Assembly (NCBI GenBank): GCA_031763025.1
Contig: JASSKH010000014.1
Coordinates: 10,964,563-11,028,562 of the forward strand
Origin: Macrocystis pyrifera
Taxonomy: Eukaryota; Sar; Phaeophyceae; Laminariales; Laminariaceae
Direction: 5' to 3'
Length of the DNA: 64,000 nt
In this document: positions 4,186 through 52,919 of the stretch, one piece after another
Position numbering within the stretch: position 1 is the stretch's first letter
Layout: each line of letters starts with the position of its first letter
Program-made: the position numbers and the translations under genes
The notes under the pieces: model-generated
Told to the model about the DNA's origin: nothing
The model's database searches: none
The model's input: the letters and a program-made list of their open reading frames with translations, nothing else

Positions 4186-4725
4186 TCAAATATTCATCAG
4201 AAAATCCCGGTGGTAACGAAACACCGTGTTGTTGAGCGGCTTTGTCAAGAAGTCTGCATGCTGTTTCTCCGACTCTACATGGGTATTAACAAATTCCCCC
4301 TTAAAAATAAGCTCGCGCAAAAAGTAGTGTCGTATGTCGAGATGTGCTTCGAATTCGACGTGCACACTGGATTTTGTGCCAGGTGCCTTGCCCCCTCGTT
4401 ATCCTCGAAAACCGTAATGCACCTCTCCCCGAACCCCGGAGAAATAAAAGTCCATACATAGCGCATGAGCATCGCCTCCTTGGTAGTATCTGCCAGTGCT
4501 ACATATTCGGCCTCAGTGGTTGAGAGTGTGACGCATTTCTGCGTCCTAGAAAACCAGCACACACACGCCCCAGCACACATGATAGCCCCACCGGAAACTG
4601 ACCTCCTGTCAGTGGCTTTGTTGGCATAGTCTGCATCTGCAAACGCTACCAGCTCAAGCCCGCTACCCTTCTGGAACGTAATGCCGAAATCACTTGTAGA
4701 AAATACATACTCTAAAATACCGACT
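4186..4725 (-). pseudogene. Copia RNase H domain, element A
   Basis: C-terminal RNase H part of the copia pol, which degrades RNA in the RNA:DNA hybrid. Visible on the minus strand are the motif STTEAEYVALAD (second acidic residue) and VFEDNEGA (third), followed by an out-of-frame KHI-type and QHADFLTKPL-type terminal region. The copy in D shows the same C-terminus. Frameshifts break the frame, for example between the EDNEGA block and the terminal block. It belongs with the RT immediately to its right. Confidence 0.85.
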
Positions 4726-5870
4726 GCTGTCCTCTAGTGTACTTCCCTCGGCCTATTCGTGTACTTCACCATCGCCCCCACCGCGTTCGCAATATCGGTT
4801 CGCAAGCCACATCAAGCACCCCACCAACTCGCGGAAAGGCCAATCACCCACGGGTTCATTCTCGTCAACCTCCTCGAGCTTCACGCCAGTCGAAAACGGG
4901 TTTTCCCTCCCAAACTAACACCAAACCTCGCCGCTGTATTTTCAGCGAACGCCCGCTGCGAAATCGTTAAAGTACCAGCATCCCAATCCCTCTAAAAACA
5001 ACAACCAGCATACCACCGCAACTCGCCCAGGTTGTTGATCGGAACAAGGTTGTTCGGGTCTTCACAGAAATGATCGCATCTAGCCTTGAGTCCTACAGCA
5101 AAAATAGCATCCACATGAACTACCGTTACAATGGAGACAGAGCCCGACTCGACCAACCTCATGACACGCGTCAGCGGGGCTCTGCTCAAATCCTAGACTC
5201 TTCATGTGAGTGAGAAGGTGGTTGTGACACGACCTCGACGCTTGCTTCAAGCCGTAGAAACTGCGATTCAACCTGGCTACCGCAGCAGACATTTCGCCGC
5301 AGCCAGGGGGTAGTCGCTTGAATACATCCTCATCCAAACTCGACTGCACGAATGCCTGCTCAGCATCAAACTGACACAAATCCAAACCCAACTCGCACAC
5401 AATAGCACCCAACAAACGGAAACGCTGCAGGCGTCGGAGCAAAAGTCTTATAGAAATCAATACCCTCACGCTGCTTGAACCTCGTGCCACCAGCCTTGGT
5501 TTCGCCCGCATCACATCACCATGCTCGTTGGACTTCCAGGCGAACACCCACTTCGCCGAGATGACGTTGAGCCCCTCTGGTTGTACGTCGCTCCAAACGT
5601 CCCCGCGTCCGCCAGCCCATGGTACTCCTTGTCCATCGCCTGTCTCCAAATGGACGAAACCTCGTCCGCACACGCTTCAGCATACGAGTTCGGCGTCGAA
5701 AGCTCGCTCGCCGGGCGTGTGGGAAGGGGAGGGTTCTCACGCGGTGGGGCTTGGTGGAAAAGTACATGGCCTATACCTTCCCGAGCTGCCATCAACGACA
5801 GCAGCCCATGCCCCATAGCCTCGCGGTCCCGCGCAGTCTCCCCTCTTGTCCGCCCCCTCAGCACATCCCC
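4726..5870 (-). pseudogene. Copia reverse transcriptase, element A
   Basis: RVT_2-type reverse transcriptase that would copy element RNA into cDNA. Readable on the minus strand: WRQAMDKEYHGLADAGTF, then after a -1 frame change NVISAKWVFAWKSNEHG, then FDAEQAFVQSSLDED and LNRSFYGLKQASRS. The catalytic box reads VVHVDA, where copia RT normally has YVDD, so the second catalytic Asp is Ala. Element D shares both the frame change and HVDA. Further private frameshifts follow, for example just after ARGSSS near 5480 and after ADAC near 5150. The enzyme cannot be functional as read. Confidence 0.9.
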
Positions 5871-36607: not shown

Positions 36608-38622
36608 TATGGGGGCCAACAGCAGTTGTAGAATAGTCGCCTTCCGCGTTGCGTAGCCCACGGCGAGATTGGCCTTACACCACGTGCGCCCCGAGGAAGG
36701 GAGGCGGGGGGTGGGGGTTGGGTTCAGTCGGCGACCGGTTCTTCGACTCGACTTCGCCGACAGTTACGGGATCAGTCCATAGTAGGACGTGTGTGGGGTC
36801 CGGAACACGTGGCGGGCGGTCGGTGTTGCGACCGCGTACCATCGGGGCTCCTTGGGAGAGTGGGGCGAATGTTGTCGAAGGGCGCTGGCGATGGGGTCAG
36901 CGTACATAGGGGGGGAGCTGCCGTCCTTATCCTACGCTCGGGCATTGACTTCGCGTGTCCCGCGAGACTAATACTGAATGGTATTCGTTGTGGCTCCCGC
37001 TGGTTTCGCCGAGAACATGTGGTTTCTGGTGTTCATTCCCCTTCGACCTACGCTATTGTTTGGGGGCTGTCAGCCCATACTAGTCAGTAGGCTGCGACCG
37101 CGGTTTGGCCTTAGAAGCTCCACGGTATGACTATCAATTCGCTGGGCTCAGGCGGGGACTCCTCAAACCGGCGAGGGCGACTGCTTGGTTTCTCCGTAAA
37201 CAGTTTATTTCTGGCATTCGTTCCGGTCGACTCTTGATGATAAGTGGTCTAGTGCGGCGCACGTAAGTTAGGAAGCGGCGACCGTCACCTTGTTCGTGGA
37301 AATCTCCGTGGGCCGGCGGGGGGGCCCGCTTGACTCACGCTAATACAATGATATTTGTCCTCACGTATGACGGCGCACCTATTGGGGTTTTCACTTTCGC
37401 TTTCGACACTCTAGCGCAAGCTTGTCTTGTTTCCATAATTTTTGTACGATTGTACGCAGACACCAACGCAACTCGTTATCCACACTTTCTGCTCCGGTAT
37501 CAAAATCCATGTAGATACGCACGGAGTTGCGTTGCCGATGTTTGTGCAATCGTCATGTTTTCTCGGCGACCCGCCTTGAAACACAGCTTCGCTTCGACGC
37601 TTGCTTACAAAAATTTACTTACTTTATACCGAGGGCGGCAGGATTCTGCCCCTCGTTGAATCGATTACCTTACCAATGCTGGAAAAGATTTTCATACTGC
37701 GTACCAAGGGTGGTAGAATACTGCCTCCTCGTCGATACGATCACTTTAAGGACGGATACATGCGCGTTTCGCGAGGCTTCCTTTGCGCTCGGATATCCTC
37801 AAACGGGTGTCCTCTCCTCCTTTCCTCTACGGTGCGCTGTACGTGGTCGCCGACGGTTGGCTCCGACGCCTCGATTGACGCCACGCACACGTGCGGTCTG
37901 TTCTTCTCGCCACGCCCCCCCTGGACACCGACGACCGCGAGTGGGCGCGCACGGGAGCTGCCTGCCTCGGGAGCGTGGCCGTCCGTGGCGGACGTCACTC
38001 GCGACCCTATGCAGGGTCGGCTACGGTGTATGCCGTTGGATGCTCCGATATGGAATGCGAGGGGGGGGGGGTGTACTCGACAGGCGAGATGTACTCGATC
38101 TCATGCATGGCCGTAGTCGTATGATCATAGATCCTCGCATCCCTACAATGCCGGGACGGAGCATGTCGGGTATTCACCGACCAGGCATTGCTTGCACCAA
38201 GCGCGAAGCGCCGTGAGGTGTCCGGCGAGTCGCATGAAGGGTGAGCTGCATCCTACTAAGAACCGCTTGTGAGGCGGACTTGCATATGGATGACAGCTTC
38301 AATGAGTTAGTTCAATTTACGGTGTAGCCACTTCCAGAGATAGCAATTTGAGCACTATGTAACTGCCTCTTGGGTGCCTTACCTTGAACACTACGTGATA
38401 CGATCAATTCCCCTGTGCAGAGAAAAAGTTCTTTACCTCGCACAAATGATCTAACTCGACGACCAGCTGTGGGCGACCGCCAAAAAAATAAAATAAAATG
38501 AAATCGGTACCCTGGTTGTCTAGCTCACGTAGTGAGCGGCATGGTTTACAGTGTCGTTGCCAACCGACGCCAACCCAACCCATATATAATCTATATAGGG
38601 GGGGGGGGGTGGAGACCTATTC
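36608..38622. other. Gag-to-RT interval, mostly unassigned
   Basis: About 2 kb with no recognised domain. At 37610-37740 two ~68-bp units (ATACCGAGGGCGGCAGGATTCTGCC and a variant) echo the wording of the minisatellite further left. Much larger than expected for a gag-RT spacer, so an unrecognised insertion is possible. Confidence 0.4.
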
Positions 38623-40600
38623 GTGCCGCGGTTCGTGCGCCGGCATGTAGGCTTCTGGCACGACATGATGGCCAAAGAGCACCCTCTTCGAGAAACGCCT
38701 GTGTTGTACTTACGCGACGGAGTGGACCTTCAAGATTTTCTCATAAAGGAATACCGGGGTCCGGCGAGCGCCTGCCCGTATTACGTCCCCAAGGTTCACC
38801 AAATTCGTGGACGACGAGGTACGAGCCCTCGTGGATCGTGGGTGTGTTGTCGAATGGGCGGACATCCGAGCCCCCGGGGAGCCGCAGGGCCCTCGCTTGG
38901 TCATGGCGTTGTAGGTCGAGGAGACAAAACCGCGTCTAATTTACGATGCGAGGCCGTTAAACAAGCGGTGCAAGAAGGTCCATTTTTCGATGGATACGGT
39001 GGTGCGGGTGGCTAGCGTCGCTTCGAAGGGTTGTTTCATGACTTCGTTGAATGATGCTTCCGCCCTTCACCACATTCTTCTGCTCCTCTCCGCTTGGCTG
39101 CTCTTTATCTTCGCGTACGGTGGCATTGATTACTGCTGGTGTGTCGTGCCTTTCGGACTCAGTTTGAGTCCATGGTGCTACCATACACTTAGCAAGGCGA
39201 AAGCAGCCTACCATTGCTCTAAAGGGATCCCGGTGTTAGCGTACCTTGACGACTCGTGGTTGAGTGACCGCCTCACCTCTGACGGGCAGACGGCGCGGGA
39301 GCAATGGCTTACTGCGGGCGAGGCTACACACGTGGCGATGTTGGTGTCGTTCCTGTGTGGTCCATTCCTGTCGGCCAAGAAGTGCGACGTCCGGGCGACT
39401 AGGCTGCAGCAGTATCTCGGGATGTTGTGCGACTCTAACACCACCACCTTTCGGGTTCCACAGGACAAGCTAGACAAACTGCAGCAGCTGCTGCGAGCAG
39501 CCCTAGACGAGGGATGTCTGTCATTCTGTACGCTGCAGCGTATCGCGGGCAAATGCATGAGCATGTCGGTGGCTATTCAGCCGGCATCGCTGTGGACGCA
39601 TGCTATGTTCGCTGGGCTTGCTGAGCTCGAGAACTCAGCTCTGTGCATGGTCGACACTAAGCAACACTCTAGGGCCGACCTTCTAGGCGAATTTAAGCTA
39701 TGGCTCAATTTGTCGGCTACCTCGCAAGAGGGGCCCTGGCAGCGGGCGTGACATTTCGTGGCGGCTTTGGCGAAAGGATCGTCAGACGCGTCATCTGTCG
39801 CATGGGGGGGCGTGGTGAACACGGCCTCAGGCACCTTCCCCGCGGGGAGGGTGTTCCCGCCAGATTGGTTGTCACAGCATATCAACCAGAAGGAGATGTA
39901 TGGCTTCTACCATCTCCTTCGACAATTCTGCATGCGACACCCGGACGTGTTGCGGCGGGCACAGGTACTAATAGACGTGAATAACCAGGCAGTAGTGGGT
40001 GCCTTTAACCGTGGGCGTGCGGAGAACCGCGAGACGCACGCGTTGCTGGTGCAGTGCTTCGAGTTGCAAGTGGCGTACGGCTTCATGCTATCGTTGAAGT
40101 GGATCCCGACGGCGGAGAACGCAGTCGCAGATGCCATTTCGCTGCCGTCACGAGACGCCATCATCCGCATAGCGCCGGCATCGTTCCAAGCAGTCTGGGA
40201 CGAGATGGGCCCGTTCAACGTCGACCTCATGGCTGGCACGGCGTCGGTGCTGCGTTCTCCAGTGACTAGGGAGGCACTACCGTTTTAATCTCAGTACGAC
40301 TGTGCGGGTTCGGCGGGGACCGACGTGTTCGCGTACAACGTCTCGCTCGTTCCGGGTACCAAGGTCCCGGTCGTCGGGTTTTGTTTCCCACCTCCGGTTA
40401 TGGCCGGCCACTTCGTGCAACATTTGGCGGAATGCGAGGCCCGCGCGGTTGTCCTTTTGCCAGACGTGAAGGCCCATTGGTTCCCTTTGGTGTAGCTAGC
40501 CACAGTGCGGTTGATCGAGGTGGCCGCAGTGGCGGTGGAAGGGTGTTTTCAGTGGCCCAGTCCAGATGGTGGCCGCAAGAATTGGTGGTACTCTCGCTGA
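38623..40600 (+). pseudogene. RT, RNase H and MT-like ORF of the tyrosine-recombinase element
   Basis: The start (FVRRHVGFWHDMMAKEHPL) is in one frame; from about 38791 a single frame runs to 40600. RT: FTKFVDDEVRALVDRG, PRLIYDARPLN, SLNDASALHHILL and the catalytic box AYLDDSW. RNase H: SSDASSVAWGG, NQKEMYGFYHLL, VLIDVNNQAV and AVADAIS. After it come FNVDLMAG and, beyond a stop, GFCFPPPVMAGHFVQHLAEC and VVLLPDVKAHWFP. These resemble the dam-like methyltransferase domain described in DIRS/PAT elements, with CFPPP in the place of an NPPY-type motif. In-frame stops lie at 38912, 39749, 40286 and 40493. Catalytic residues of RT are present, but the copy is broken. Confidence 0.9.
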
Positions 40601-40764
40601 GGTATGATAGCATACGAGTGAGACGTCGGTACCAAAGGCTAACGATTGCCCAAGTTTCGGCAACTATCGCGCGCGGATGGGCAGCTATCACGTAGTAGAG
40701 TGCATATATTTCGCGGTTTCGGACGTTTTCGAACGCTCACTGAAGTTTACGGTCTCACTTTCTT

Positions 40765-42066
40765 TTGTGTTCTCCTTCAAACAGCACGGCGCTAGCGGGA
40801 GCCACCTTCAGGGTGGGGCACTTATCAGCGGGGCGGCCACGACCAGGGACTTGGTTCGGTTTGCGTTTTGGCTTTACGTGTCAGGAAGAAAACGTTGCAC
40901 AGCTTAATTTTGCTGGAAATGCGGCGCTCCGCCGGTTCGATCATTGCCAGCCCCGCGATATCCGGGGCGGTTGCCGGTCGTTGTGGATGTGGATAAGATG
41001 CAAGCACGTTGACGCCAAGTACTGGCGGCGATGGAAGGGCGCTCCGGGCAAGTCCGGAAAAGCAAGGTGGTCGAGGAGATTGACGCGTTTATTGCTCGTT
41101 GTATCGGCCGGGTTCCGTGGTTGGCAAACAACCACCCCGGACGATGTCTTTAACTTCCTCTGCTTTCTGGACACGCAAGGGAAAGGCACCTAGATGGTGC
41201 ATGAAGCGTCCTGTCCCGGTGTGGGCCATGCGGGCGACGATATGTGCCTGGCGGGGTCGTCGTGTGCTAAACGGCACGCGGCCGAGTCTATTCGGAAAAA
41301 AAATGTCTCGAAGCTGAAAATGGCGATGAAAGAAATCGGTAAGGGAGAGGAATGGGACCCTGTCCGGCGGGTAGGAAATCCCTGCTCGAGCCCGTTGGTA
41401 GATTCGTACCTTACCTTCGTTTCTGAGGAACAGAAACAGGTCGGGGATCAGGTCAATCAGGCCGCGCCGATGTTGGAACACACACTCAGAGATCTGTTAA
41501 GCGACATGCGGTGGCGCGCTCAGGTGGACATCTCTCTGGCAGAGCGTATTTTTCTGACCCGAGATATCGCCTTGTATTCTTTGGCCTTCTTTTCGATGCG
41601 TAGGGGTTATGATCTTTCCTTTACCATGGGGTCGCACGTTTTGAAGCTCCCAGCGTCCAAGGGTTTGATTTTCAACTTTTAGTTCGGCAGGACGCTTTGG
41701 GCCTCTAGTGAGGCAGTAGTAGGCTTAGCGAACCGGGACTGCTTGGCGATTTGCGCCTTTCGGGCGGTTACGGTGTATATCTCGGCCGCACAAAAGATTA
41801 GGTGGGACTTCACCACCGGGCACCTCTTCCCCGTTGCTACGGTAGAAGGTGGCCGGGGTCGTCTCTCTCTCTCCGCGGCCCGTATGACGGCGAACCTGCA
41901 AAGCTGTCTGCGGATGGCAGACCTTCCGACCCACTTCACGATGCACTCCTTTCGAGTGGGAGGCTCGCTCAGCAAATCCCTGGCCGGGACGGCTGTGGAC
42001 GAGATCACGAAAATTGGGGGCTGGAAGACAGAGTCAGTTGCGAAGTACTACATCGGAGCTACCTAG
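40765..42066 (+). pseudogene. Tyrosine recombinase of the DIRS-group element
   Basis: One frame with two in-frame TAG stops (41191 and 41680). The C-terminal catalytic part shows the first Arg in FFSMRRGYDLS, the HxxR box in FTMHSFRVGG and the Tyr region in GGWKTESVAKYYIG. That is the R...HxxR...Y set of tyrosine recombinases, which integrate a circular cDNA without staggered target duplication. Its position after RT/RNase H and before B1 fits PAT/Ngaro elements. The stop at 41680 sits in FNF.FGRT and would be a one-step change from a Gln codon. Confidence 0.9.
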
Positions 42067-42280: not shown

Positions 42281-42352
42281 GCCGGTACAGGAGGCCTCAT
42301 CCAATCCAGTACTCACATTAAATGATCGACGGTAGAGGAACAGAATACTACA
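42281..42352 (+). repeat. Split direct repeat B1
   Basis: Matches B2 at 42628-42702 (GGAGGCCTCATCCAATCCA, ACATTAAATGAT, ACGGTAGAG and ACAGAATACT). It abuts A2 directly. Confidence 0.88.
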
Positions 42353-42627: not shown

Positions 42628-42702
42628 CCGGTGCAGGAGGCCTCATCCAATCCAATACTTACATTAAATGATCCACGGTAGAGAGACAGAATACTGCAGT
42701 AT
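42628..42702 (+). repeat. Split direct repeat B2, right end of the element
   Basis: Terminal copy of B, ending near GCAGTATAG, similar to the B1/A2 junction. Confidence 0.85.
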
Positions 42703-43703
42703 AGTAGATACGTATCATTTCCTAACAAGGTACCCACACGCTGCAGAATATATATTTTTGCCACATTTAGTACTTGTCTGTTTTTCTTTTTTCAAGCCCA
42801 TCGGTATACCTAGTATCGTCAGTCGTCTCCTACATACAGGAACCACACTCTGTACCTATGTTTTGATCTGGTTTCATACTGACAAGCTTGGGTGAATACA
42901 GATGTAGCACTGACCAAATTTATATGGTACCACACAACAATCGAGCCATGCGCGAATACCAGACTTGAACTTTGCCGAGCAGTCTGTAACATCGTATAGT
43001 TCTTTCCGCGTCGGGTTCTAAACGGTAGCGTACGCACTTCCCCCGTGCCGCAAGTCTCTGTTTTTGGGAGGGGGGTTCTGTATCGTTTTACATGCGTATG
43101 CCCACCGCCAAAGGACAATGCTTGTGTATCTGGTATATTATACTGTTTTGAGCACTCCCGGAAAACATCGGAGTTTCACTCATTTTGAAAACCATGTCGG
43201 GGAATGGCCCATTTTAGCGTAACATTTGCTTTTGCTCGTGTTACAACCATGTATGCTTGAGCCAAGACATGCTCTCGCAACATTTGCGCACTTTACTGAT
43301 ACATCCGAACTATATGTGCCTCGGAACAAGGTGTATACGTCTCATACACCCCGAGCTACGGGATATTTGAGTGTATTATTAGCCGCCGCACGTGGTTCCT
43401 TACCCCGTCTCTGTAGTACCTAATGGTGTACATAAGTGAACACCAGGAGCCCTCCGTCCTTAAAAGCCCCGCTATCCTTCGGAGGACCCTATAACTTGCG
43501 TGCCTGAGAAGTACTTTTGCCGTAGAGTATGCCTTAAGATATATTGTTGTGTTTTTTTTTGCTTTTTTTGTATAGGGATTTCTCGGTGATTTTAATCCCC
43601 TGCCGAGCACGCAAGCTCATTCCGGGTCAATCATCAATCTTCACGTTCCGGCTCTGTTGGTGACGTTCGTACACTACTAGTACTGCGTCCTCTGCTCCAG
43701 CGA
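42703..43703. other. Unassigned stretch
   Basis: No recognised coding or repeats. A gypsy LTR might be expected close to its right edge, but I found no second copy that would define it. Confidence 0.35.
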
Positions 43704-45562
43704 ATGCATTGTTCCTGCACCACAACGCGATTCCGGACCCCTATGGATCCATCTAACAGTGTACACGCCACCCCCGGGCTTAGAAGCCCCCACAGATGCG
43801 GTCACGACTCGCCTAGGCCCACCAGGATTTACATGATCTCACCCGCCACCACCGGCCTCATACCCTTGCGCTTAACCGCCCTCATTGTTTGGTTCATAGC
43901 TCTCATCTTTCCTGCTGCTGTGCTTACGGCGCGTCTACGGCCTCGATCACCCGGCGCCCAACCACAGTTGTCCTACGCCGAAATACCTGTTGAGGTTATT
44001 TCTATGAAATTATGACCTCAACAGGTGGAAGCCGCGACGTTTCCACTATGTATGCCGCCGCGACGATAGCCATGCTCAACCACCGCACCCACCATCATGC
44101 GTCGTGTTATTCGCTCGCTATCCTCCTATCCCGGTTAACACGCCACCCTCGGCATTGACATGCCCATCAACTGCGACAAACAACGCCTTTCCACCCAACG
44201 CCGGTTCCGCACCCCTACGGCGCCTGCGCCCACCACCTACCGCGCCAAACAACCCCGTAAGCAAACACCGCAACACCACCCAGTACTACCGTCGTTCTTC
44301 CACGTCTACCGGCTACATCTTCGAGCAACAGCAGCGACAGCAACATTGACTCACCATGCAGACGTTACCCCAACAGTGGTAGCCACGACGACGGTCGCGC
44401 TCACCTCAAATTTTGCGACGCCCCTGGCGCCTGCATTGCCCTCCCGAAATCGTCACAACCGTGGCGGCTTGCAACCAGAACACACTTGCGACGGCCCCTC
44501 GAGCCAGCGCATCAACCGTCTGCACGCTTCTTGGGCCTACTACGGGCGTATACAACCAGCATCATCCCTTCTGTACTGCCAGACACCATCTGGATATAAG
44601 TTACGCCGGCTGCACCTCTTTATCGAATACTCCCGGTTTTTAGTTTTTCGACGTCTACACCGTGTTGACGACACATTTGCACAATAGCACCACCGCTATT
44701 TTGCCTCTGCATGTCAGCTCCGTGCGCGCAGAATTGTTGCGTGCTCAGGGTGAACCCTGCCTCAGCTGTAGCAGCCTAGCCTGCAGCGTGAAGGCCTGTA
44801 GGAAATTTGTTGGCACAGCGTGGCACAAGTCTGACGATGGACAGCAGCTACCGCGACGACAGGCTTAATTCCAGCGGCAGCGTGGGTGGCCGATCACGAC
44901 CTCGGCGACATTATTTTCGACGCTGCACGCTTGTTGCCGATACCTCACCTTATGCGAAACGGTATCTCTTTCGGGTCCAGGACCAGGTTCGCCTTTATCA
45001 GGATGATCTTTCTCCTTCTTATCCTCTGATGACACCATTCCCCCTACTCACTCATTCCAGTAGTAATCACTTGACCAAGTGTGGATCCGCTTGTTTACGT
45101 CATCCTCTTGAAATGTGGTTGGTAGGAGGTTCAAAAGTCGAGCCTTACAAGGACGCTCGCCTCGACGTCTCCTGTCGATGAGCAACGCTGGGACTTGCCA
45201 ACCACTGCTGAGTGTCCAGAAGGAGAAATTAACCTGCCAGACGCCTCGACGACCAAGGCTACCAGCGGTTCCGGTACTGTGCGCGGCTCAGCCGCCTCTT
45301 CAACCGAGCCATCGACCTAGCTGGCTTGCAACAATCTAAGCGCTCTGCTCGCGGTACGTTCGCGAGCTCCACAGCAGCTTCTGCTGGATCCCAGAATGAA
45401 ATTGACGTCGAGACCTCCGCTGACCGCCAGATGCTGACAACTCCACCATCCCTAGACCTAGGGGGTAGTCCCGCCCTTTGAAAGGCGCAAGACTCGCGAC
45501 TATCGTTGACTAGGAGATTCGTGGAGCCACCTGTCCCGCCATCCTTCCCGTTGCCGTGAAAT
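43704..45562 (+). pseudogene. Possible gag / ORF1 region of the gypsy element
   Basis: Ser/Thr/Pro/Arg-rich frames in changing phases (for example 43704-44015 and 44807-45181). No Cys/His knuckle or recognisable capsid domain is visible. Called from its position upstream of the pol domains and its shared strand. An imperfect 14-bp inverted repeat lies at 43986-44029. Confidence 0.3.
43986..44029. other. Inverted repeat, ACCTGTTGAGGT arms
   Basis: ACCTGTTGAGGT at about 43986 is answered by ACCTCAACAGGT about 18 bp further on, a potential hairpin. No function is inferred. Confidence 0.6.
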
Positions 45563-46720
45563 ATGATACGACACCGCAGGACCCGGATGACAACAATCGT
45601 CTCTCCTAGCAAGTGGACCCCAGCTTCCCAGTCGAAGACCAACCCAAGCAGGAACCTCAAGGGTATCTTCGGCTATGCTCGAGACCCTCCGGGAACTCGG
45701 CGATGCCGCCCATTTCCCGCACGGACGTCGCGAGCGCAGCCGGGCTCCTTGACCCGGTTTGTCTCCCAACGACGCTCCGGCTACGTCCAACAGCGTCCTT
45801 CAGATTCGGTAAGACCGACCATTTCCTCCGCCAACATTGAGAGCGTAGCTGGACTTATTGATCTGACTCCCCCACCCACGACACCATTCGACAGTCTCAG
45901 AGACCGCCGCCCATCACCACAGCCAGATCAGTCTGCACACACTCGGAGCTTCACGCCTGACCAACTTAACTTGTTCTGGCAACATGCCTCCACCCTTTCA
46001 CAGTGATACATGTCGGACTTCGTAAACGAAGGCACCGACTAAAACCACGCCGACCAGTTCGTCAAGGCGCGAAAGGCCGCTCGTTTTGGCGGCAATATGC
46101 GGCACCATCCAATCATTGCCTCGTCCGATCTGGCTCAGTAGAAAGCCCTCGAACGCTCCGTATCTGCTTTCGACGACGACGTATGGGTCCAACACCGCCT
46201 CTCCATGGTTTTTTAAACGAAGTTGAACAAGTTCGGCCGAAGCCCGGATTTTCTCGGATCGCTCTTGGAGACGGACAACAAACTTCTGGCTGAAGCCAGC
46301 CCTTATGACCTTATCTGAGGCATAGGTTTCAGGGCCGGTGAACGACTGGCCTACCACCCTTCGCTCTGGAAGAGCTTCAACCTTGTAGGGTGAATGCCGG
46401 GGACCATCCGACAGGATCTTCCACCCCCCTTTTTCCACCACGATCCCGACCGAGCCGCCGCGTTATTCCTGATGACCGCTAACCACCTTCACGCCGGCAC
46501 CCCAACGATTTCGCCTTTGACCACTCCAGCCCTCGTCGAGGCCAACCTGGTGCGACAGCTCGACACTCCAGCGTTCACCGAGACTTACATAGTTATTATG
46601 TCAACATGCTTCCCCGTGATGATCTTCCTTCAAACACGGCGATGGTCAAACGTCAAACACGATTATCTTTGTCTCCGAAGGGCACCCGACTGTTACGCTT
46701 TCCGGCTCCACCGGGCGTGA
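45563..46720 (+). pseudogene. NADAR (YbiA/DUF1768-like) domain fused in a gypsy polyprotein
   Basis: One frame from 45563 to 46720. A Pro/Ser/Arg-rich N-part (to about 45960) runs directly into a NADAR domain at 45971-46390. Recognisable blocks: LNLFWQHASTLSQ; NHADQFVKARKAARFGG (normally an AEQ..MA.KA..FGD-like motif, here Asp replaces the usual Glu); KALERSVSAFDDDVW; LNKFGRSPDFLGSLLETDNK; LLAEASPYDLI followed by a stop and GIGF, the place of the invariant WGIG; and SLWKSFNLVG. Stops lie at 46004, 46040, 46139, 46214 and 46316, and after LVG at 46391. A further 108 codons (46394-46717) stay in the same frame. NADAR proteins are N-glycosidases acting on ADP-ribose derivatives. No indel breaks the domain, so the loss is by point mutation. 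Confidence 0.85.
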
Positions 46721-46860
46721 ACCGGGGGATCCCCTTGGGACCTCCTCGTTTCCGTTGGTACAAGTGCCAATTTTCACCCTTGCCTACCCTTCCCTGGAGC
46801 CCCCTCTGTCCCTTTCGCCCCAAATGTCCAAACCCCTCACGACGCTGACGAAGGCCCCAC

Positions 46861-47335
46861 TCCTGGCTGGTTCGTCAAGGTAATCACCAAGGTAATCAAA
46901 GACCTGGAACGTGTCGCCACCTATCTTGACGACATCATCGTCAAATATCCGGACCCTGCAGCCCACACCACCAATATCCGAGCCCTCTTTGAACGCCTTC
47001 GCCTCCACAACCTCAAGCTCTCCGCCACCAGGGCAAGAATTGGCGCCACCAAGACCGACTTCGTGGGACACACGATTTCCCCTGCCGGCGCTGCCCTAAC
47101 GCCGACAAGGTAGCTGCCTTGACCAAGATGCCGATGCCGTCAAACGTGAAGCAAACGCGCGCGCGTATTGGCGGAATTGGCTACTACCGCAATTCCTAGG
47201 AACCCTCTCCACAGGCCTACACCCCATAACGGCCCTGCTCAAGCAAGGGGACAAATTATTCTTCACCCCGGCCATGGACGCAACCATCTGAGAGACTCTT
47301 CGTGAGTTCGCTGCTTCTCCGATCCTGGTGTTCTC
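46861..47335 (+). pseudogene. Gypsy reverse transcriptase palm remnant
   Basis: Reads GWFVKVITKVIKDLERVATY then LDDIIVKYPDP, so the catalytic YLDD is intact. LFERLRLHNLKLS and FVGHTISPAGA follow, then after a frame change ADKVAALTKMPMPSNVKQT and a stop (CTGAGAG) near 47288. The finger and early palm motifs that should precede GWFVKV are missing, implying a deletion between about 46720 and 46860. Confidence 0.85.
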
Positions 47336-47770
47336 CAACTACAACGCCGTCGTAAACAACTCCCGCCCCTTCCGCTTGTACTGTGACCCCAGCCGCGACG
47401 GCTTCAGCGCCACCTTCGATCAGAAACACCTAGACGGCTCCGTCCGACCCAACCTGTTGATCAGCCGTGCCACCTTTGACTCACAACGGTCTTGGATCCC
47501 CCTCGACGTTGAAGCCGGTAGCATCGTTTAAACCATCAAGCGGCTACGCGGTCACCTTTGGTCCACCAAGGTTATCATCTACTCCGACCACAAGGCGCTC
47601 GAGAATGTCGCAAAGTAGGCGAGCACAACGCCCGCGTCCAGCGTTGGTTGGAGTTCCTCTGCGCCTAGACATGCACGCTGACGTATCGGAAAGGCCCGAC
47701 CAACGGCAACGCCAACTTCCTCTCCCGCCTTCCCCAGCCAGCCACGGAGGCTGATCGAACTGGACCCAAC
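47336..47770 (+). pseudogene. Gypsy RNase H domain
   Basis: FRLYCDPSRDGFSATFDQ contains the first catalytic Asp. It is followed by PLDVEAGSIV, a stop (TAA near 47529) and IKRLRGHLWSTKVIIYSDHK, typical of Ty3/gypsy RNase H. After a frame change come HNARVQRWLEFL and NANFLSRLPQPATEADR. A stop also falls in the YTYTLEYRKG-equivalent stretch. Confidence 0.85.
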
Positions 47771-48759
47771 CGCCTAACCAACCCCGACACGGTGGGCATC
47801 TACCTGATCGGTATCTGCGGCTTCACGCCTTGCGAACCCTCCATGCTGGGCATCGGCTTTGGTGGGCTCGTACCTACTCCTTCCCTTCCCATCCCAGTCA
47901 TCCGACCAATTACTTTCACAGATGATGACTATGGCAACGTCCGCCGCCTATGACCCCCCATGGGCTTTTCCAGACTTTCCTCGGTCCCCAAAACCTTCGT
48001 CGGGCCTATTTTAACCCACGCCAACACCGCCGGATCCCTCGTCAAATCCGCAACCTGGGCCGTGGACGCTGGCGGTCCTTCTGGCTTAGCTTTCAGGCTG
48101 CCCGTTGTCTTTCCACCACCCACCATTGACGCCACAACACCAGCTCCTACGGACATAATCTCTTCGCGGACCCGCCATCACGCCGTTGCCGCCGCTGGCA
48201 TCCCCCGCGCCACCGCCGACGATGGTTTCGCCGAGCAATGGTGTCTGTGCCTCCAAGGTCAACGCCGACCCGTCCCCGTACACCCACGCCCGCGCACGAG
48301 GGACCATCGAACCCTTCCGAACCAACAATCCCCTAGGCCGTGCCGCCCGCGCAACCAATGCAGCCCGCGCTGCGAGCGTCCCTGGGCTGAAGATCGCTAT
48401 TGACACCGTCTTCTTACCCATCTAGGCCCCACACCCCCGAGCCTGCCGTCGCGCCCTACAACGATCTTCCACGACCGGCTTCATACCGACCTTTTCCACG
48501 ACCTCCGGCGTCGCCCTCGCTTTTCCTGCCAGGGTTCGCCGACGACGACCCCCACACTCTATCTTATGTGGAGCAAAACACGCACGTATTAGGCGCGCGA
48601 ACAAGCCGCAGAGCCCCTCTGCGCCGCTACCATACACTCATCTCCTTGCGCTCGCCGGCCCCTCCGCCTCCCGATCTCCTGGATTATTTGCAGCCGTCCC
48701 GGCGCCCTCTAAACGTGCTTGCCTTGACAGGAAAAAAATAACAACTCCGCCGCAATGTT
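47771..48759 (+). pseudogene. Gypsy RNase H-integrase linker region
   Basis: TGPNRLTNPDTVGIYLIGIC opens a connector in frame with the RNase H end. The rest is Pro/Ala/Arg-rich with changing frames (47960-48403, 48400-48741) and no catalytic motif. Long antisense frames here are composition effects. Confidence 0.5.
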
Positions 48760-49613
48760 GGCGACACCGTTCCCCTGGTTCGACAACCACATATGCCCGC
48801 CTACACCGGGACCAGCTGCACGTCTTCCACCGTACCACCCCCGCGCATCCACGGTCCGATGTTGATGCGCCTTTGCGTGCTGCACATCTGCCACGCCACC
48901 GCTTCCTACTACTTGGGAGTTGCGCGCAGGGTCAGCATGCTCGCGTACGTTTTATGGTGAGTAGGCATGGGCATCTCCGCCCGCTGGTGGATCCGGCGCT
49001 GTCTCAAGCGCCAGGTGGGCAAGACCTCGCGCCAAACCACCCGCTGGACCACCCGTTCCTTGCCCCTACCCAATGGCCCCGGTATAACCTTCAGCGTCAA
49101 CTACTTCGGCCCGCTGCTTCTTACCCCACGCGGAAACTCCTACATCCTCGTCTTCACCGATCGCTTCTGCCGCCGCACCGACATGTACGCAGTGGAATAA
49201 GCGCAATTTATCGCCGTCGGCGCTGCCGACATCCTCCTCGACCGGCATATCTCTCTGTGGGGGTGCCGCGTCACCCTCATTTCCGACAAAGGGCTGCACT
49301 TTACCTCGAACCTCTGCAACGCCATCTACGAACGCCTTGATATCAACAAGATCAATGCCAGCTCTTACCACCCCTGCACCAATGATAGCTTCGAGCGCGT
49401 CAACCACACTATGGCCCAAATGCTTTCCATGAGCAGCAACGAGCGACGAGACAACTGGGACGAGCTGCTTCCGCACGTCGAAGCAGCCTACAACAACTCG
49501 CCTACCGCGACCACTCGGTCTACTGCAACCTTGCCACCGAGCGCCAACAACGCGCCTACCGCCTCGTCCGCGACCACCCACGCCGTCACCGCTTCACGTC
49601 TGGCCCGTCGCTA
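48760..49613 (+). pseudogene. Gypsy integrase
   Basis: An HHCC-like relic (LCVLHICHATASYYLG then RRCLKRQVGK, where the second Cys of the CxxC is Arg) precedes the core: GPGITFSVNYFGPLLLTPRG, ILVFTDRFCRRTDMYAVE, stop, DILLDRHISLWGCRVTLISD, SSYHPCTNDSFERVNHTMAQ and LPHVEAAYNNS. The first catalytic Asp is Asn (VNYFGP), whereas the second Asp (ISD) and the Glu (FERVN) are present. A stop also occurs in ...LW.VGMG near 48958. Dead by both nonsense and active-site change. Confidence 0.88.
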
Positions 49614-49739
49614 AACCCCATCATGGACGCCCTTCGTCCTTCTCCTCCTTATACCTCAGGCGGCTGGGCATGGGTCTACAACTCCGCGGCCACTATCCGC
49701 TAAGGTTCCAAAAAAAGGCATCGACACCACCGTGCTCTA

Positions 49740-50667
49740 GGGGAACCTTTCCCTCAACTGGATTGAACTGTTCAAGATTCTCGCGGTGGGCCTAGCGCCG
49801 GCCTCTGACATCCTCGACAACTGACCCCTCGACGACAAACTCCTCCTCGACGTACCCTCCGACCTACCTGGACGAGACTTCAAACGCCGCGTCTCCGTCG
49901 AGCACTGTAAGCCCTGCCGAAACCCCGACGACACCAACGATATGCCCAAGAATACCCTCAAGCCTCACAAACTACCTTCGCCAACCAATCCCCTCCCTTT
50001 CACGTCACCTTCGACGACGTCTCAACACCGCCAGAACTACTCGAGGTCAAAAAGATTACGGGTCACCAACTCGTTCGCGGCCGTGGTGGGGTGATCGCGG
50101 TGCTCTATGAAAACCCATTGGATCGGACTGCTTAGCCATTTCCGGGAGCGGAAAGTGACCTCCAATACTCCAGACGCCACATCCTCTTCTATTGGTCTGG
50201 CACTCCAACGCAACACCGCCAGTCAAATTGCCTCTACCGACATACCTGGTATGCGCATCGGTGCCGCGGAGCTCGAGCTATCGCGCTTTAAGGACCAAAT
50301 ATTCCTGGCTTCCAGCTACACCCTTGTTCCCCGTGATTTCTGGCTACGCTCCTTCAGCTTCACCGTGCTTCCAGCGAGAGCACATCTTTGGTACAAGGCT
50401 CGCGATGGCCTATGGTGGCTGGACAAGATTGCCATTTGTGTTCCCCCGGACTCTCCTTCGGACAACACTTGCGTCATCCGGTTCCTCGACGACCCCGGAC
50501 AGGTCAAGATCAACCTCCGGCTGGCGAAGTCCACAACCTCCAGCGCCACCATCTACGGGTCGTGGTGTTTACAACGAAATAATACTGGGAGCCTAGCTCA
50601 CGGGGTATTACGCAGTTCCGACAGGTGCAGTGAATCTCATATTTCCCCTCTAGGCCATCATGAGTAG
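49740..50667 (+). pseudogene. C-terminal region of gypsy pol
   Basis: After a broken stretch with frame changes, a 186-codon frame (50107-50667) reads THWIGLLSHFRERKV, GMRIGAAELELSRFKDQIFL, LRSFSFTVLPARAHLWYKAR, DGLWWLDKIAICVP and VIRFLDDPGQVKINL. The WYKARDGLWWLGKI...FLDDPG pattern resembles the Tudor/chromo-like C-terminal tail of some gypsy elements, which may steer integration. I identify this by its place after integrase more than by domain certainty. Confidence 0.65.
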
Positions 50668-50834
50668 ACGTATTTTGCATTGAGCATTTGTTCGGATCTT
50701 TAGGGTGCGTTTACCTTCGTTTTGCGACCCTAGTATGCCGCTTCCTTTCGGGTTGAGGTTTCGGCTGATTCGGTTTAGCATTACGTGTACGATTTTCTGT
50801 GTCCCTTCTACTTCAGGGTGCATTGATTTGGTAT

Positions 50835-51410
50835 TTCCATCTTACCACCGACAGTTGGCGTGGTTTATTTTACGCTCGGACTTGTAGGTTTGTTTCTTTT
50901 GTCTACATATATTCGTTTGTTTTGAATTATTCCTCACAGAATAGTGTTGTATTTTCAGGTGTGTTGGTATGGTGTCTTACGTCTGCTACTGCCGATTCCA
51001 TTCGCTTTCTCTAGCAAAGGCAGTCGAACTGTCGTGGTATTGTCTTTTCGGATGTGTCAGTTTAGCCTCTTCAATCTACCACCGCCGGTTCCCTTTGCAT
51101 TCTCTCGCGAACGCAGGAAAACTGTCGTGGTGCTGTCTTTCGGTTGTGTGGGTCTGCTGTTTTCAATCCACGGTTACCGGATCCGTTCGCCTTTTATAGC
51201 GGTGACAGCCAAATTGTCGTGGTATTGTGCCTTCGGGATAAATATATCGGTTATTCTCTCTACCACTGCCGGTTCCGCTTGCCTCCACAGCGAATGCCGC
51301 CTAACCGTCGTGGTATTGTACCTTCGGGATATGGCGTTCGATGTTTCACTCTACCACTGCCGGTTCAGCCTGCCTTCTCATTGAAGGCCGCCAAACCGTG
51401 GCGCTACAGT
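50835..51410 (+). repeat. Tandem repeat of ~90-100 bp units
   Basis: About six units share TCTACCACYGCCGGTTCC, a CATTCTC..GAA block and ACTGTCGTGGTATTGT.CTTTCGG. Units diverge strongly. It lies just beyond the gypsy pol end and may belong to that element's 3' non-coding region. Confidence 0.8.
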
Positions 51411-52129
51411 ATTTTTTGTCAAGGCGTTTGCCTACTTCTTTGCATGTTTTTTCGGTTTTTCCTATCTTACGTATCTGTTGGACAGATACCTTCTATTTCT
51501 TACTTCGCTTTCGACGTACGTGACCTGCTTTAGGTTTCATGCTTCTGTTGCCGTTTTCCGGGCGTTTCTTTTGGCCCCCTTTGATTGACATGTTTGTTTG
51601 AGCCGCGAAAAACCTGGCTCCAATCCACTTTATTCTGCTTGTTTCGCAGTATATGAGGCGTTCCCAAATGCCCTCGTCTTTCATGGCGTATGTATTCTCG
51701 GAAAGACCCGTCCCTGACACCCTTGCGCTAGTGTATTCACCAGCTGACGGCCTCGGGTCCCACGTCTTGGTCTATTGGTTCCACCCTCTCGCTAGCCTCG
51801 AGACCCCATGTTGTAGACGCCCTTTTATTTTCCTTTCAAAGTTTGCAGCGTGCTTCCCGCCAACCTATTATATTTCGCCTTGGTTTTCTTCATGCCCTAG
51901 CGCCTTTGTCTGGTTTCTTGCGCTTTGTTATTCTCCTTCCGGGTAGTCGTTTATTTTTCAGGGAGGCGTCTACACCTTACTACGGGTTGAGGGGTGGATC
52001 TATCACCTATGTTATGTGTTGAATAGCCGCATCTTCGATCCCTCTTCCCGAGTTCGAGATGGTATGCTCTAATCTAATCTTTTATCGTCGTGTGATCTGC
52101 ATCTACAACTATCTGGGTGGGCTAATGTG
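51411..52129. other. Unassigned stretch
   Basis: Nothing recognised on either strand. Confidence 0.35.
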
Positions 52130-52919
52130 ATGGAGTAGCACATCCATCGTATAGGAACCTATATATATATTATTATTTATTTATTTATTTTTTACTCGTC
52201 ACTTTCACTTTCCAGCCTAATTCGTAAAGAGGTTTTACCTTCGACGACCTTCTGGACAAGCCGTGGTCACAGGTGTCTTCCCTTCTCCCCCCCGGTACGT
52301 GCCTTTATTTTTTATCGCGCACAGGGTTCTGCATTCCCGCTGCTCGTCCATTTTCATCGAAAGTAGCCAACTCACACTCTCGCGCTTTCCGCTAATCAAT
52401 CTATTTTATGCAAGAAAAAGCCCCTACGAGCATGCACTCGGTGAGACTTGAACCCACGAATATGATCTTGATAGGCACGCGGACCACCTACCAAGCCGCC
52501 GGGGACGCCGGCTATATACTCGTAAGCGAACCATATATAGTGGCATCTATAGTTTCGGGAATACCAGGTTTACCTGCGGATGAATCTTATATGGTTACAC
52601 GTAGCGCTTGACAATTGTATCTGCAGGCGAAACTTGTATGGTTTTACGTAGCGCTTTGGGAATCTTCTGCATGACAACGTTGCGGTAGAGAGCAATAAAT
52701 TATAGTTTAGGAAAGTTATGTATGCAACGTCCCGATAGACTGTATCTGCACACTCGTTAGTTTTGGTCAACGTCTTGGCTGAGTTGTGTTCCCGACGAAA
52801 TCTCGTCCCTCAACTCACTTGTGGAGCAATAAAAACAAGTTCGTTAACTACAGGCAGCATGCTCTACCCAGCATCGACATCCCTGTGCCCCTTACTAGCT
52901 TGTATCTTTGCAATCTCTG
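52130..52919 (+). repeat. Dispersed repeat R, copy 2, interrupted by a SINE
   Basis: Same repeat as 30928-31441. The segment 52130-52158 continues at 52519 after the SINE, so copy 1 is the empty site. It shares the CTTTGGGAATCTTCTG, GCAACGTCCCGATA and CAGCATCGACATCCCTGTGCCC blocks. Confidence 0.8.
52166..52511 (-). mobile_element. tRNA-derived SINE, copy 1
   Basis: Read on the minus strand. A tRNA-like head of ~90 nt has a degenerate A box (GGCTTGGTAGGTGG) and a B box (GGTTCAAGTCTC). A ~220-bp body includes a GTGACCACGGCTTGTCC block, and an A-rich tail appears as the T/A run at 52168-52192. CTATATA occurs on both sides (52159-52165 and 52512-52518), a plausible target-site duplication. The matching empty site is in repeat R copy 1 at about 30955-30967. 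Confidence 0.82.

What the first reader, a model, noticed from the sequence alone, without database searches (positions are those of the whole stretch)
45563..46720. NADAR domain fused in frame inside a Ty3/gypsy polyprotein
Seen: the frame carries the ordered NADAR blocks (NHADQFVKARKAARFGG; KALERSVSAFDDDVW; LETDNKLLAEASPYDLI then GIGF; NLVG), with Pro-rich sequence before it and 108 codons after it in the same phase, all upstream of gypsy RT, RNase H and integrase on the same strand. Known: NADAR/YbiA proteins are N-glycosidases on ADP-ribose derivatives, including ADP-ribosylated nucleic acid. Inference: an ancestral element may have used it to remove ADP-ribose marks from its nucleic acid or proteins, or to counter an ADP-ribosylation-based host response. 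This copy is inactivated by five stops with no indel across ~140 codons.
Basis: partly seen in the sequence, partly recalled or inferred. Interest (0 to 1): 0.88.

Follow-up and report, generated by a model that had tools for sequence, protein, structure and literature searches.

The report
Decayed kelp retrotransposon carrying NADAR enzyme
A dead, internally deleted copy of a giant-kelp Ty3/gypsy retrotransposon still shows an ADP-ribose-removing NADAR domain, which better-preserved relatives carry just before the protease; a recent brown-alga study already described such elements, so the finding is real but largely known.

Summary
Window 45974-46430 (+) encodes a NADAR domain (PF08719, E 1.1e-20 with stops masked), broken by six stops, upstream of remnants of gypsy RT, RNase H and integrase. 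The assembly's size and contig number match giant kelp (Macrocystis pyrifera). NADAR is a standing part of this element lineage: the genome gives 1264 first-look NADAR candidates, and all 150 scored pass the cut-off. Of 20 RT relatives fetched (of 39), 11 keep NADAR upstream; none joins its two flanks without it. Better-preserved copies and database proteins give the order NADAR, protease, RT, RNase H. Comparisons across families show purifying selection (omega 0.13-0.18), and catalytic residues are conserved. The window copy lacks the protease and RT N-terminus through deletions shared with two other copies. The lineage is already in print: a 2025 Ectocarpus paper reports NADAR at the N-terminus of Pol in one Gypsy lineage. 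Added here: the kelp copies and three families, selection and active-site tests, the deleted subfamily, and a distant gypsy polyprotein (P0108) that probably captured NADAR separately. Anti-host or RNA/cDNA-cleaning roles remain inference.

The parts
42701..52138 (+). Remains of one Ty3/gypsy-type element (family C here). Ends approximate; the copy's own LTRs were not found.
   Evidence: Copy L042 is homologous from 42701 on. 50680-51440 recurs downstream of several family C copies. 51977-52138 matches the 3' region of family B copies. No 5'/3' repeat found inside the window.
45563..46006 (+). Pro-rich open frame upstream of and running into NADAR
   Evidence: DNA of this stretch is homologous in L039, L040, L041, L042, L044, L045, L048, L051, L055 at least in part
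45974..46430 (+). NADAR (YbiA-type) domain, stops at 46004, 46040, 46139, 46214, 46316, 46391
   Evidence: PF08719 E 1.1e-20; stops; 61.7% identical to L041 over 128 aa
46428..46430 (+). Junction of an internal deletion; relatives carry the protease region here
   Evidence: Alignment breaks here against L041, L039, L048 but runs through in L042 and L051. The motif LLDTGSPQ lies at L041 3573, L048 3571, L058 3532, inside the lost stretch, and is absent from window, L042, L051 and the decayed L039.
46430..46810 (+). Remnant of the protease-RT linker
   Evidence: Homologous to L041 3892-4264; matches the L058 linker by eye
46806..46862 (+). Second deletion junction; N-terminal part of RT missing
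   Evidence: L041 jumps from 4264 to 4998 while window, L042 and L051 are colinear
46862..47110 (+). C-terminal part of reverse transcriptase with YLDDI
   Evidence: PF00078 positions 128-205, E 5.4e-6, below curated cut-off
47330..47620 (+). RNase H remnant (approximate limits)
   Evidence: PF17917 E 6.2e-14, PF17919 E 5.9e-9
49074..49610 (+). Integrase core remnant
   Evidence: PF00665 E 0.0048, below cut-off; family B copy L033 has Integrase_H2C2 5e-16 and rve 6e-6 (rve below cut-off)
50019..50590 (+). Decayed C-terminal chromodomain-like and PWWP/Tudor-like stretch of Pol (approximate)
   Evidence: Same-place stretch of family B copy L081 searched alone: PF00385 Chromo E 0.0021, PWWP E 0.088, both below curated cut-offs; whole ORF no hit. 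Window matches L081 here at 70%. No Pfam hit in the window ORF itself at E 0.5.

Best explanation
The segment is a decayed copy of a brown-algal Ty3/gypsy retrotransposon lineage whose Pol starts with a YbiA-type NADAR domain, followed by protease, RT, RNase H and integrase. This copy belongs to a subfamily that lost the protease and the RT N-terminus but still multiplied, presumably in trans. Shown: domain, position, recurrence, past purifying selection, conserved catalytic residues. Inferred: the intact NADAR is made with Pol, goes into the particle with RT and integrase, and acts as an N-glycosidase that strips ADP-ribose from guanine in the element's RNA/cDNA, or from soluble ADP-ribose derivatives, so that reverse transcription and integration escape ADP-ribosylation by the host or by RNA processing. 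I hold the identity at about 0.95 and the enzymatic protective role at about 0.4; the confidence given blends the two.
For: Domain. 1264 first-look NADAR candidates in the genome; 150 scored, all over cut-off, 126 without a stop by my count by eye. 11 of 20 fetched RT relatives have NADAR upstream (9 of the 18 fetched without prior knowledge, plus L057 and L058, fetched after one search had shown NADAR beside them); 0 of 20 show joined flanks without it. By coordinates, 4 more of the 19 unfetched have a NADAR hit upstream. Database proteins with NADAR and RT in one chain: P0100 (Ectocarpus sp. CCAP 1310/34) and P0113. Selection on NADAR: 31 intact copies omega 0.379, lnL -2560.4 versus -2594.5 at omega 1; representatives of three families 0.183 (-1546.4 versus -1593.7) and 0.125 (-1439.1 versus -1491.1). 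Residues matching E43, K50 and E125 of the ADPr-bound NADAR 8BAU: 22, 22 and 23 of 23 family A copies, 7 of 7 each in family B. NADARs hydrolyse guanine-linked ADP-ribose (PMC11543638, passages). Shared deletions with L042 and L051.
Against: No activity, expression or substrate data. NADAR is less constrained than RT (omega 0.125-0.183 versus 0.035), and synonymous sites are near saturation between families (pS 0.63-0.77). Within families the ratio is near neutral decay (pooled pN/pS 0.54 for A, 0.72 for B; dN/dS 0.63-0.98 for window against L041, L044, L040). Nine of 20 relatives lack NADAR; in L043 homology starts right behind the NADAR end, so a loss at that border cannot be told from a truncation there. 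The copies used for active-site counts came from the best-scoring hits and are biased to intact ones. Only one PARP exon was found in the host, and the DarT search did not complete, so a host ADP-ribosylation threat is not established.
Confidence: 0.6

Rival explanations
1. A one-off nested insertion or host-gene fragment that landed in this copy and has nothing to do with the element.
For: This copy alone, with stops and deletions, could look like that. Nine of 20 fetched RT relatives have no NADAR.
Against: NADAR sits at the same place in 11 of 20 fetched relatives and in two other kelp families. None of the nine without it has both flanks joined. Published in Ectocarpus.
Confidence: 0.01
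2. The NADAR is a binding or structural module (RNA or ADP-ribose recognition, particle assembly) rather than an enzyme of the element.
For: NADAR evolves faster than RT. Positions matching ligand residues Y84 and D86 are F and mostly C or E in kelp A and B copies.
Against: E43, K50 and E125 are nearly invariant in the intact copies looked at. In the E. coli C7 NADAR the counterparts of K50 and E125 are needed for efficient hydrolysis, while the E43 counterpart tolerated alanine in vitro but not glutamine (PMC11543638, passages).
Confidence: 0.2
3. The NADAR cleans up ADP-ribose derivatives formed in RNA processing or repair, helping the RNA intermediate, with no host conflict.
For: Processing of RNA intermediates is proposed in PMC12477816 for these elements (passage); RNA-processing by-products are named as possible substrates of viral NADARs in PMC9503650 (passages).
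Against: No direct evidence either way. [quoted passage not shown]
Confidence: 0.3

Closest known systems
Ectocarpus Gypsy lineage with NADAR (Gypsy-12_Ec32; PMC12477816, passages read)
   Same: YbiA-type NADAR at the N-terminus of Pol, Ty3/gypsy, brown alga, putative chromodomain at the C-terminus of Pol. Database protein P0100 from Ectocarpus sp. CCAP 1310/34 has NADAR, RT and RNase H, with RT 59% identical to a family B copy over 307 aa.
   Different: Other host (giant kelp); several diverged families; this copy is decayed and lacks protease and RT N-terminus.
Tx1 LINE ORF1 NADARs of Crassostrea gigas (PMC12477816, passage)
   Same: NADAR in a retrotransposon protein
   Different: Non-LTR element, other ORF; not compared here
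NADARs in polyproteins of positive-strand RNA viruses (PMC9503650, passages)
   Same: NADAR embedded in a replication polyprotein
   Different: RNA viruses of animals, RdRp instead of RT
Phytophthora nicotianae NADAR, PDB 8BAU (PMC11543638, passages)
   Same: Best solved-structure match of a kelp element NADAR, E 1e-18; positions matching E43, K50, K75, R79, W89, R93, E125, D130, W133 are identical in family B (the chain runs two ahead of the paper's numbering, my inference)
   Different: An orphan YbiA-type NADAR, not described as part of an element in the passages read
P0108, a 1415-aa database polyprotein NADAR-protease-RT-RNase H-integrase from an unnamed ENA contig
   Same: Same order of domains
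   Different: RT only 32% identical to family B although its NADAR is up to 54% identical to kelp NADARs; one clade with the grouped element NADARs rejected, p-AU 0.028

Membership tests
NADAR superfamily (PF08719), YbiA family | Profile match above curated cut-off | tested here: met
   74.9 bits versus 35.1 for the window with X at stops; 161-173 bits in three intact kelp ORFs
NADAR superfamily (PF08719), YbiA family | Catalytic residues E43, K50 (8BAU numbering of the paper) | tested here: met
   Families A and B nearly invariant (22 of 23 each in A, 7 of 7 in B); the decayed window copy has D at E43 and K at K50
NADAR superfamily (PF08719), YbiA family | Glutamate (not aspartate or histidine) at E125, which defines the YbiA family | tested here: met
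   E in 23 of 23 A, 7 of 7 B, 4 of 4 C rows including the window; rule from PMC11543638
NADAR superfamily (PF08719), YbiA family | Hydrolysis of ADP-ribose from guanine | not testable with these tools
   No assay
Ty3/gypsy (Metaviridae) | Protease, RT, RNase H, integrase in that order | tested here: met
   In relatives: LLDTGSPQ motif, then RVT_1, RT_RNaseH, Integrase_H2C2, rve below cut-off. No Pfam protease hit in L004; P0108 hits gag-asp_proteas weakly. In the window copy the protease and RT N-terminus are missing.
Ty3/gypsy (Metaviridae) | Long terminal repeats | tested here: inconclusive
   Family B: 404 bp at C126:3105375-3105778 match the 3' end of another B copy at 99.3%; last 62 bp not matched. 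None found for the window copy.
Brown-algal NADAR Gypsy lineage (PMC12477816) | NADAR at the N-terminus of Pol, before the protease | tested here: met
   L004 877-aa ORF: NADAR 454-603, then LLDTGSPQ; P0113 begins with NADAR and runs into RT
Brown-algal NADAR Gypsy lineage (PMC12477816) | Chromodomain at the C-terminus of Pol | tested here: inconclusive
   PF00385 E 0.0021, below cut-off, when the stretch is searched alone; no hit for the whole 452-aa ORF
Brown-algal NADAR Gypsy lineage (PMC12477816) | RT groups with that lineage | tested here: inconclusive
   RT identity of family B 63% to P0113 and 59% to Ectocarpus P0100 versus 32% to P0108; no RT tree with the published families

The most novel reading that the evidence does not exclude
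ADP-ribosylation of nucleic acid (or an ADP-ribose signal) is a general barrier to retrotransposons, and NADAR is a recurrent counter-measure. It was captured at least twice by unrelated Ty3/gypsy Pol polyproteins, at the same spot before the protease (the brown-algal lineage and P0108), as well as by Tx1 LINEs and RNA-virus polyproteins, and was kept by selection through deep divergence among giant-kelp families.
Probability: 0.3. Interest if true: 0.75.

Novelty: new member of a known kind. Interest (0 to 1): 0.42.

Why it matters
It turns a striking single observation into a tested one: the NADAR is a lasting, selected part of a large kelp retrotransposon lineage, and gypsy elements probably captured it more than once. 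That makes it directly testable whether retrotransposon nucleic acid is ADP-ribosylated in algae and whether elements fight it. The precedent in Ectocarpus lowers the surprise.

Tried and rejected
First NADAR protein search with the masked window domain gave no hit (6 candidates, none at E 0.001); words broken by X and length limits may explain it. Nested one-off insertion: rejected. An early guess of mine that the host was a protist parasite of oysters was dropped when assembly size and contig number matched giant kelp. LTRs of the window copy: not found. LTRs in the family B copy on C193: not found, its 5' side being broken; a repeat was found on C126. One search ended in a script error after finding no match. 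Family B 3' end: 40 scored of 2439 candidates, none, by eye, with a full-length partner 5-20 kb away on the same strand, as an LTR shorter than the 501-bp query would give. One origin of the grouped element NADARs: not rejected (p-AU 0.292) but not shown, few deep branches being supported. Both AU tests were run after a quick tree had been seen, which weakens them. P0108 in IMG/VR: 10 pattern matches, no relative; P0108 in the kelp genome was asked once and not answered. NADARs of 706 phage records match a kelp element NADAR below 60% identity; not pursued. P0133 (1503 aa with NADAR) has no other Pfam domain, so my impression of a reverse-transcriptase-like part is unsupported. Literature: searches (20 of 104 papers listed, many for an author name; 1 paper; 0; 1; 4); in these listings only PMC12477816 dealt with NADAR in retrotransposons. 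A codon comparison was one codon out of register for the window rows; redone, and the window rows are dropped.

Full report
Observation. The frame at 45563-46720 does carry a NADAR domain. With X at each stop, Pfam gives PF08719 at E 1.1e-20, 74.9 bits against a cut-off of 35.1. The domain runs from about 45974 to 46430, with six in-frame stops at 46004, 46040, 46139, 46214, 46316 and 46391. Downstream on the same strand are remnants of RT (C-terminal part, E 5.4e-6), RNase H (E 6.2e-14) and integrase (E 0.0048), the RT and integrase hits being below their curated cut-offs.

Host. The window lies in an assembly of 537,376,219 bases in 223 contigs. The giant kelp genome paper gives 537 Mb, 35 scaffolds plus 188 contigs and GC 50.37% (PMC10498591, passages). 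I take the host as Macrocystis pyrifera; the tool does not name it.

Is NADAR part of the element? A genome search with PF08719 gave 1264 first-look candidates. The 150 scored were all over the cut-off, and 126 had no stop by my count by eye; being the best-scoring, they are biased to intact copies. A search with the window's RT-RNase H DNA gave 903 candidates, 40 scored, one being the window. I fetched upstream DNA for 20 of the other 39: the 16 best-scoring, L028, L029, and two (L031 and L034, refetched as L057 and L058) that one search had already shown to lie beside a NADAR. By tblastn, 11 of the 20 have NADAR upstream, 9 of the 18 without prior knowledge. By coordinates, 4 of the 19 unfetched also have a NADAR hit upstream (C200:16079443, C190:12609736, C193:333073, C223:3543779); for the rest I do not know. 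The 9 fetched without NADAR (L043, L046, L047, L049, L050, L052, L053, L054, L056) lose similarity to L041 before the slot or at its border: L043 starts right behind the NADAR end, and L054 has a detached upstream match 2.8 kb away. None shows the two flanks joined without NADAR.

Anatomy of better-preserved copies. In L004 one 877-aa open frame holds NADAR at residues 454-603, followed by the aspartic-protease motif LLDTGSPQ (recognised by eye; no Pfam protease hit). Family B copy L033 has RT, RNase H, integrase zinc-binding and a sub-threshold integrase core in one open frame. In L057 and L058 NADAR and RT are open but in different frames. Database proteins P0100 (named Ectocarpus sp. CCAP 1310/34) and P0113 hold NADAR and RT-RNase H in one chain. 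So the order is (gag)-NADAR-protease-linker-RT-RNase H-integrase; the gag label is my inference from position. A C-terminal chromodomain-like stretch (E 0.0021, below cut-off) and a PWWP/Tudor-like stretch (E 0.088) follow in L081 when searched alone; the whole ORF gives no hit. For family B an LTR is supported but not complete: 404 bases at C126:3105375-3105778 match another B copy's 3' end at 99.3%, its last 62 bases unmatched. The 3' terminal 501 bases match all 40 scored of 2439 candidates at 97-100%, which suggests recent spread of family B.

This copy. Window, L042 and L051 align in one gapped stretch over 45660-47460, whereas L041, L039 and L048 all break at window 46428-46430 and near 46806-46862. 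The protease motif of L041, L048 and L058 lies inside the first lost stretch and is absent from window, L042 and L051, though also from the decayed L039. The three copies therefore share two internal deletions, which removed the protease region and the RT N-terminus. They lie at three different places and are about 77-84% alike, so a deleted form multiplied, presumably with proteins supplied in trans (inference).

Selection and active site. A codon model on 31 kelp NADARs without stop or gap (23 A, 7 B, 1 C; 140 codons) gives omega 0.379, lnL -2560.42 against -2594.54 at omega 1. Four-copy sets across the three families give 0.183 (-1546.42 against -1593.67) and 0.125 (-1439.14 against -1491.11). 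RT of the same families (four copies) gives 0.035, so NADAR is selected but less tightly. Caveats: synonymous differences between families are near saturation (pS 0.63-0.77), and within families pN/pS is closer to neutral, 0.54 and 0.72. Window against L041, L044 and L040 gives dN/dS 0.63, 0.70 and 0.98, as expected of decaying copies. The best solved match is 8BAU, E 1e-18, the Phytophthora NADAR with bound ADP-ribose. Residues matching its E43, K50 and E125 are kept in 22, 22 and 23 of 23 A copies and 7 of 7 B copies. The window has D, K, E at these places, and a stop where W133 stands.

Relatives and origin. In a careful tree of 55 NADARs, family C (window) joins family B and its close database relatives (94/82). 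Family A falls with Ectocarpus P0100, P0113 and others; the unnamed P0004 also falls among them. Holding 18 rows that I grouped as element NADARs as one clade is not rejected (p-AU 0.292). Of the database rows in that group only P0100 bears an organism name here, and four (P0002, P0003, P0005, P0077) are short proteins in which I saw no Pol. P0108 is a full NADAR-protease-RT-RNase H-integrase polyprotein from an unnamed ENA contig. Its RT is only 32% identical to family B, although its NADAR reaches 54% identity to kelp. Kelp A and B are 74% alike in RT but only about 51% in NADAR. Adding P0108 to the clade is rejected at p-AU 0.028, a test run after a first tree had been seen. A separate capture of NADAR is the simplest reading.

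What is known. PMC12477816 (passages read; [quoted passage not shown] PMC11543638 and PMC11125620 (passages) show guanine-ADP-ribose hydrolysis by NADARs. My literature searches (with 20 of 104 listed, 17, 68, 69, 70) showed no other paper on NADAR in retrotransposons.

Mechanism. Shown: a catalytically plausible NADAR, kept by selection, at the head of Pol. Inferred: it is co-made with Pol, packaged, and strips ADP-ribose from the element's nucleic acid or from soluble derivatives. The host has at least one PARP-type exon (1 match of 6 candidates); the DarT search did not complete. I put the identity of the element at about 0.95 and the enzymatic protective role at about 0.4; the single confidence of 0.6 blends them.

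Verdict. Real and well placed, but a new member of a known kind. Interest 0.42, with a bolder convergent-capture reading at probability 0.3.

Noticed in passing
window 38500-42063: Open frames that read like a DIRS/Ngaro-type element (RT-like part, then a tyrosine-recombinase-like ORF ending near 42063), followed by two 79-bp repeats at 42282 and 42628, 89% alike. Naming is by eye; no profile search was made.
   Followed up: no
window 50944-51389: Degenerate head-to-tail repeats of about 91-93 bases in the element's 3' region; the region recurs downstream of other family C copies.
   Followed up: partly
G000:C198:1310671-1892864: Nineteen copies of the element's 3' region within 0.6 Mb, many about 30 kb apart and on both strands, suggesting a segmental array (40 of 82 candidates scored).
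   Followed up: no
window 52170-52510: Dispersed repeat also found in L080 and in part beside L018; it contains a tRNA-like stretch on the minus strand by eye, perhaps a SINE. ARAGORN finds no tRNA in the window.
   Followed up: no
L081:4345-5700 (minus strand): End of Pol in family B carries a chromodomain-like and then a PWWP/Tudor-like stretch, both weak: possibly two chromatin readers in a row.
   Followed up: partly
database protein P0133 (1503 aa): NADAR inside a long protein with no other Pfam domain; its C-terminal part looked reverse-transcriptase-like by eye.
   Followed up: partly
database protein P0096 (682 aa, Haliotis rufescens): Three NADAR-like units in tandem in a mollusc protein, by eye from the sequence.
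   Followed up: no
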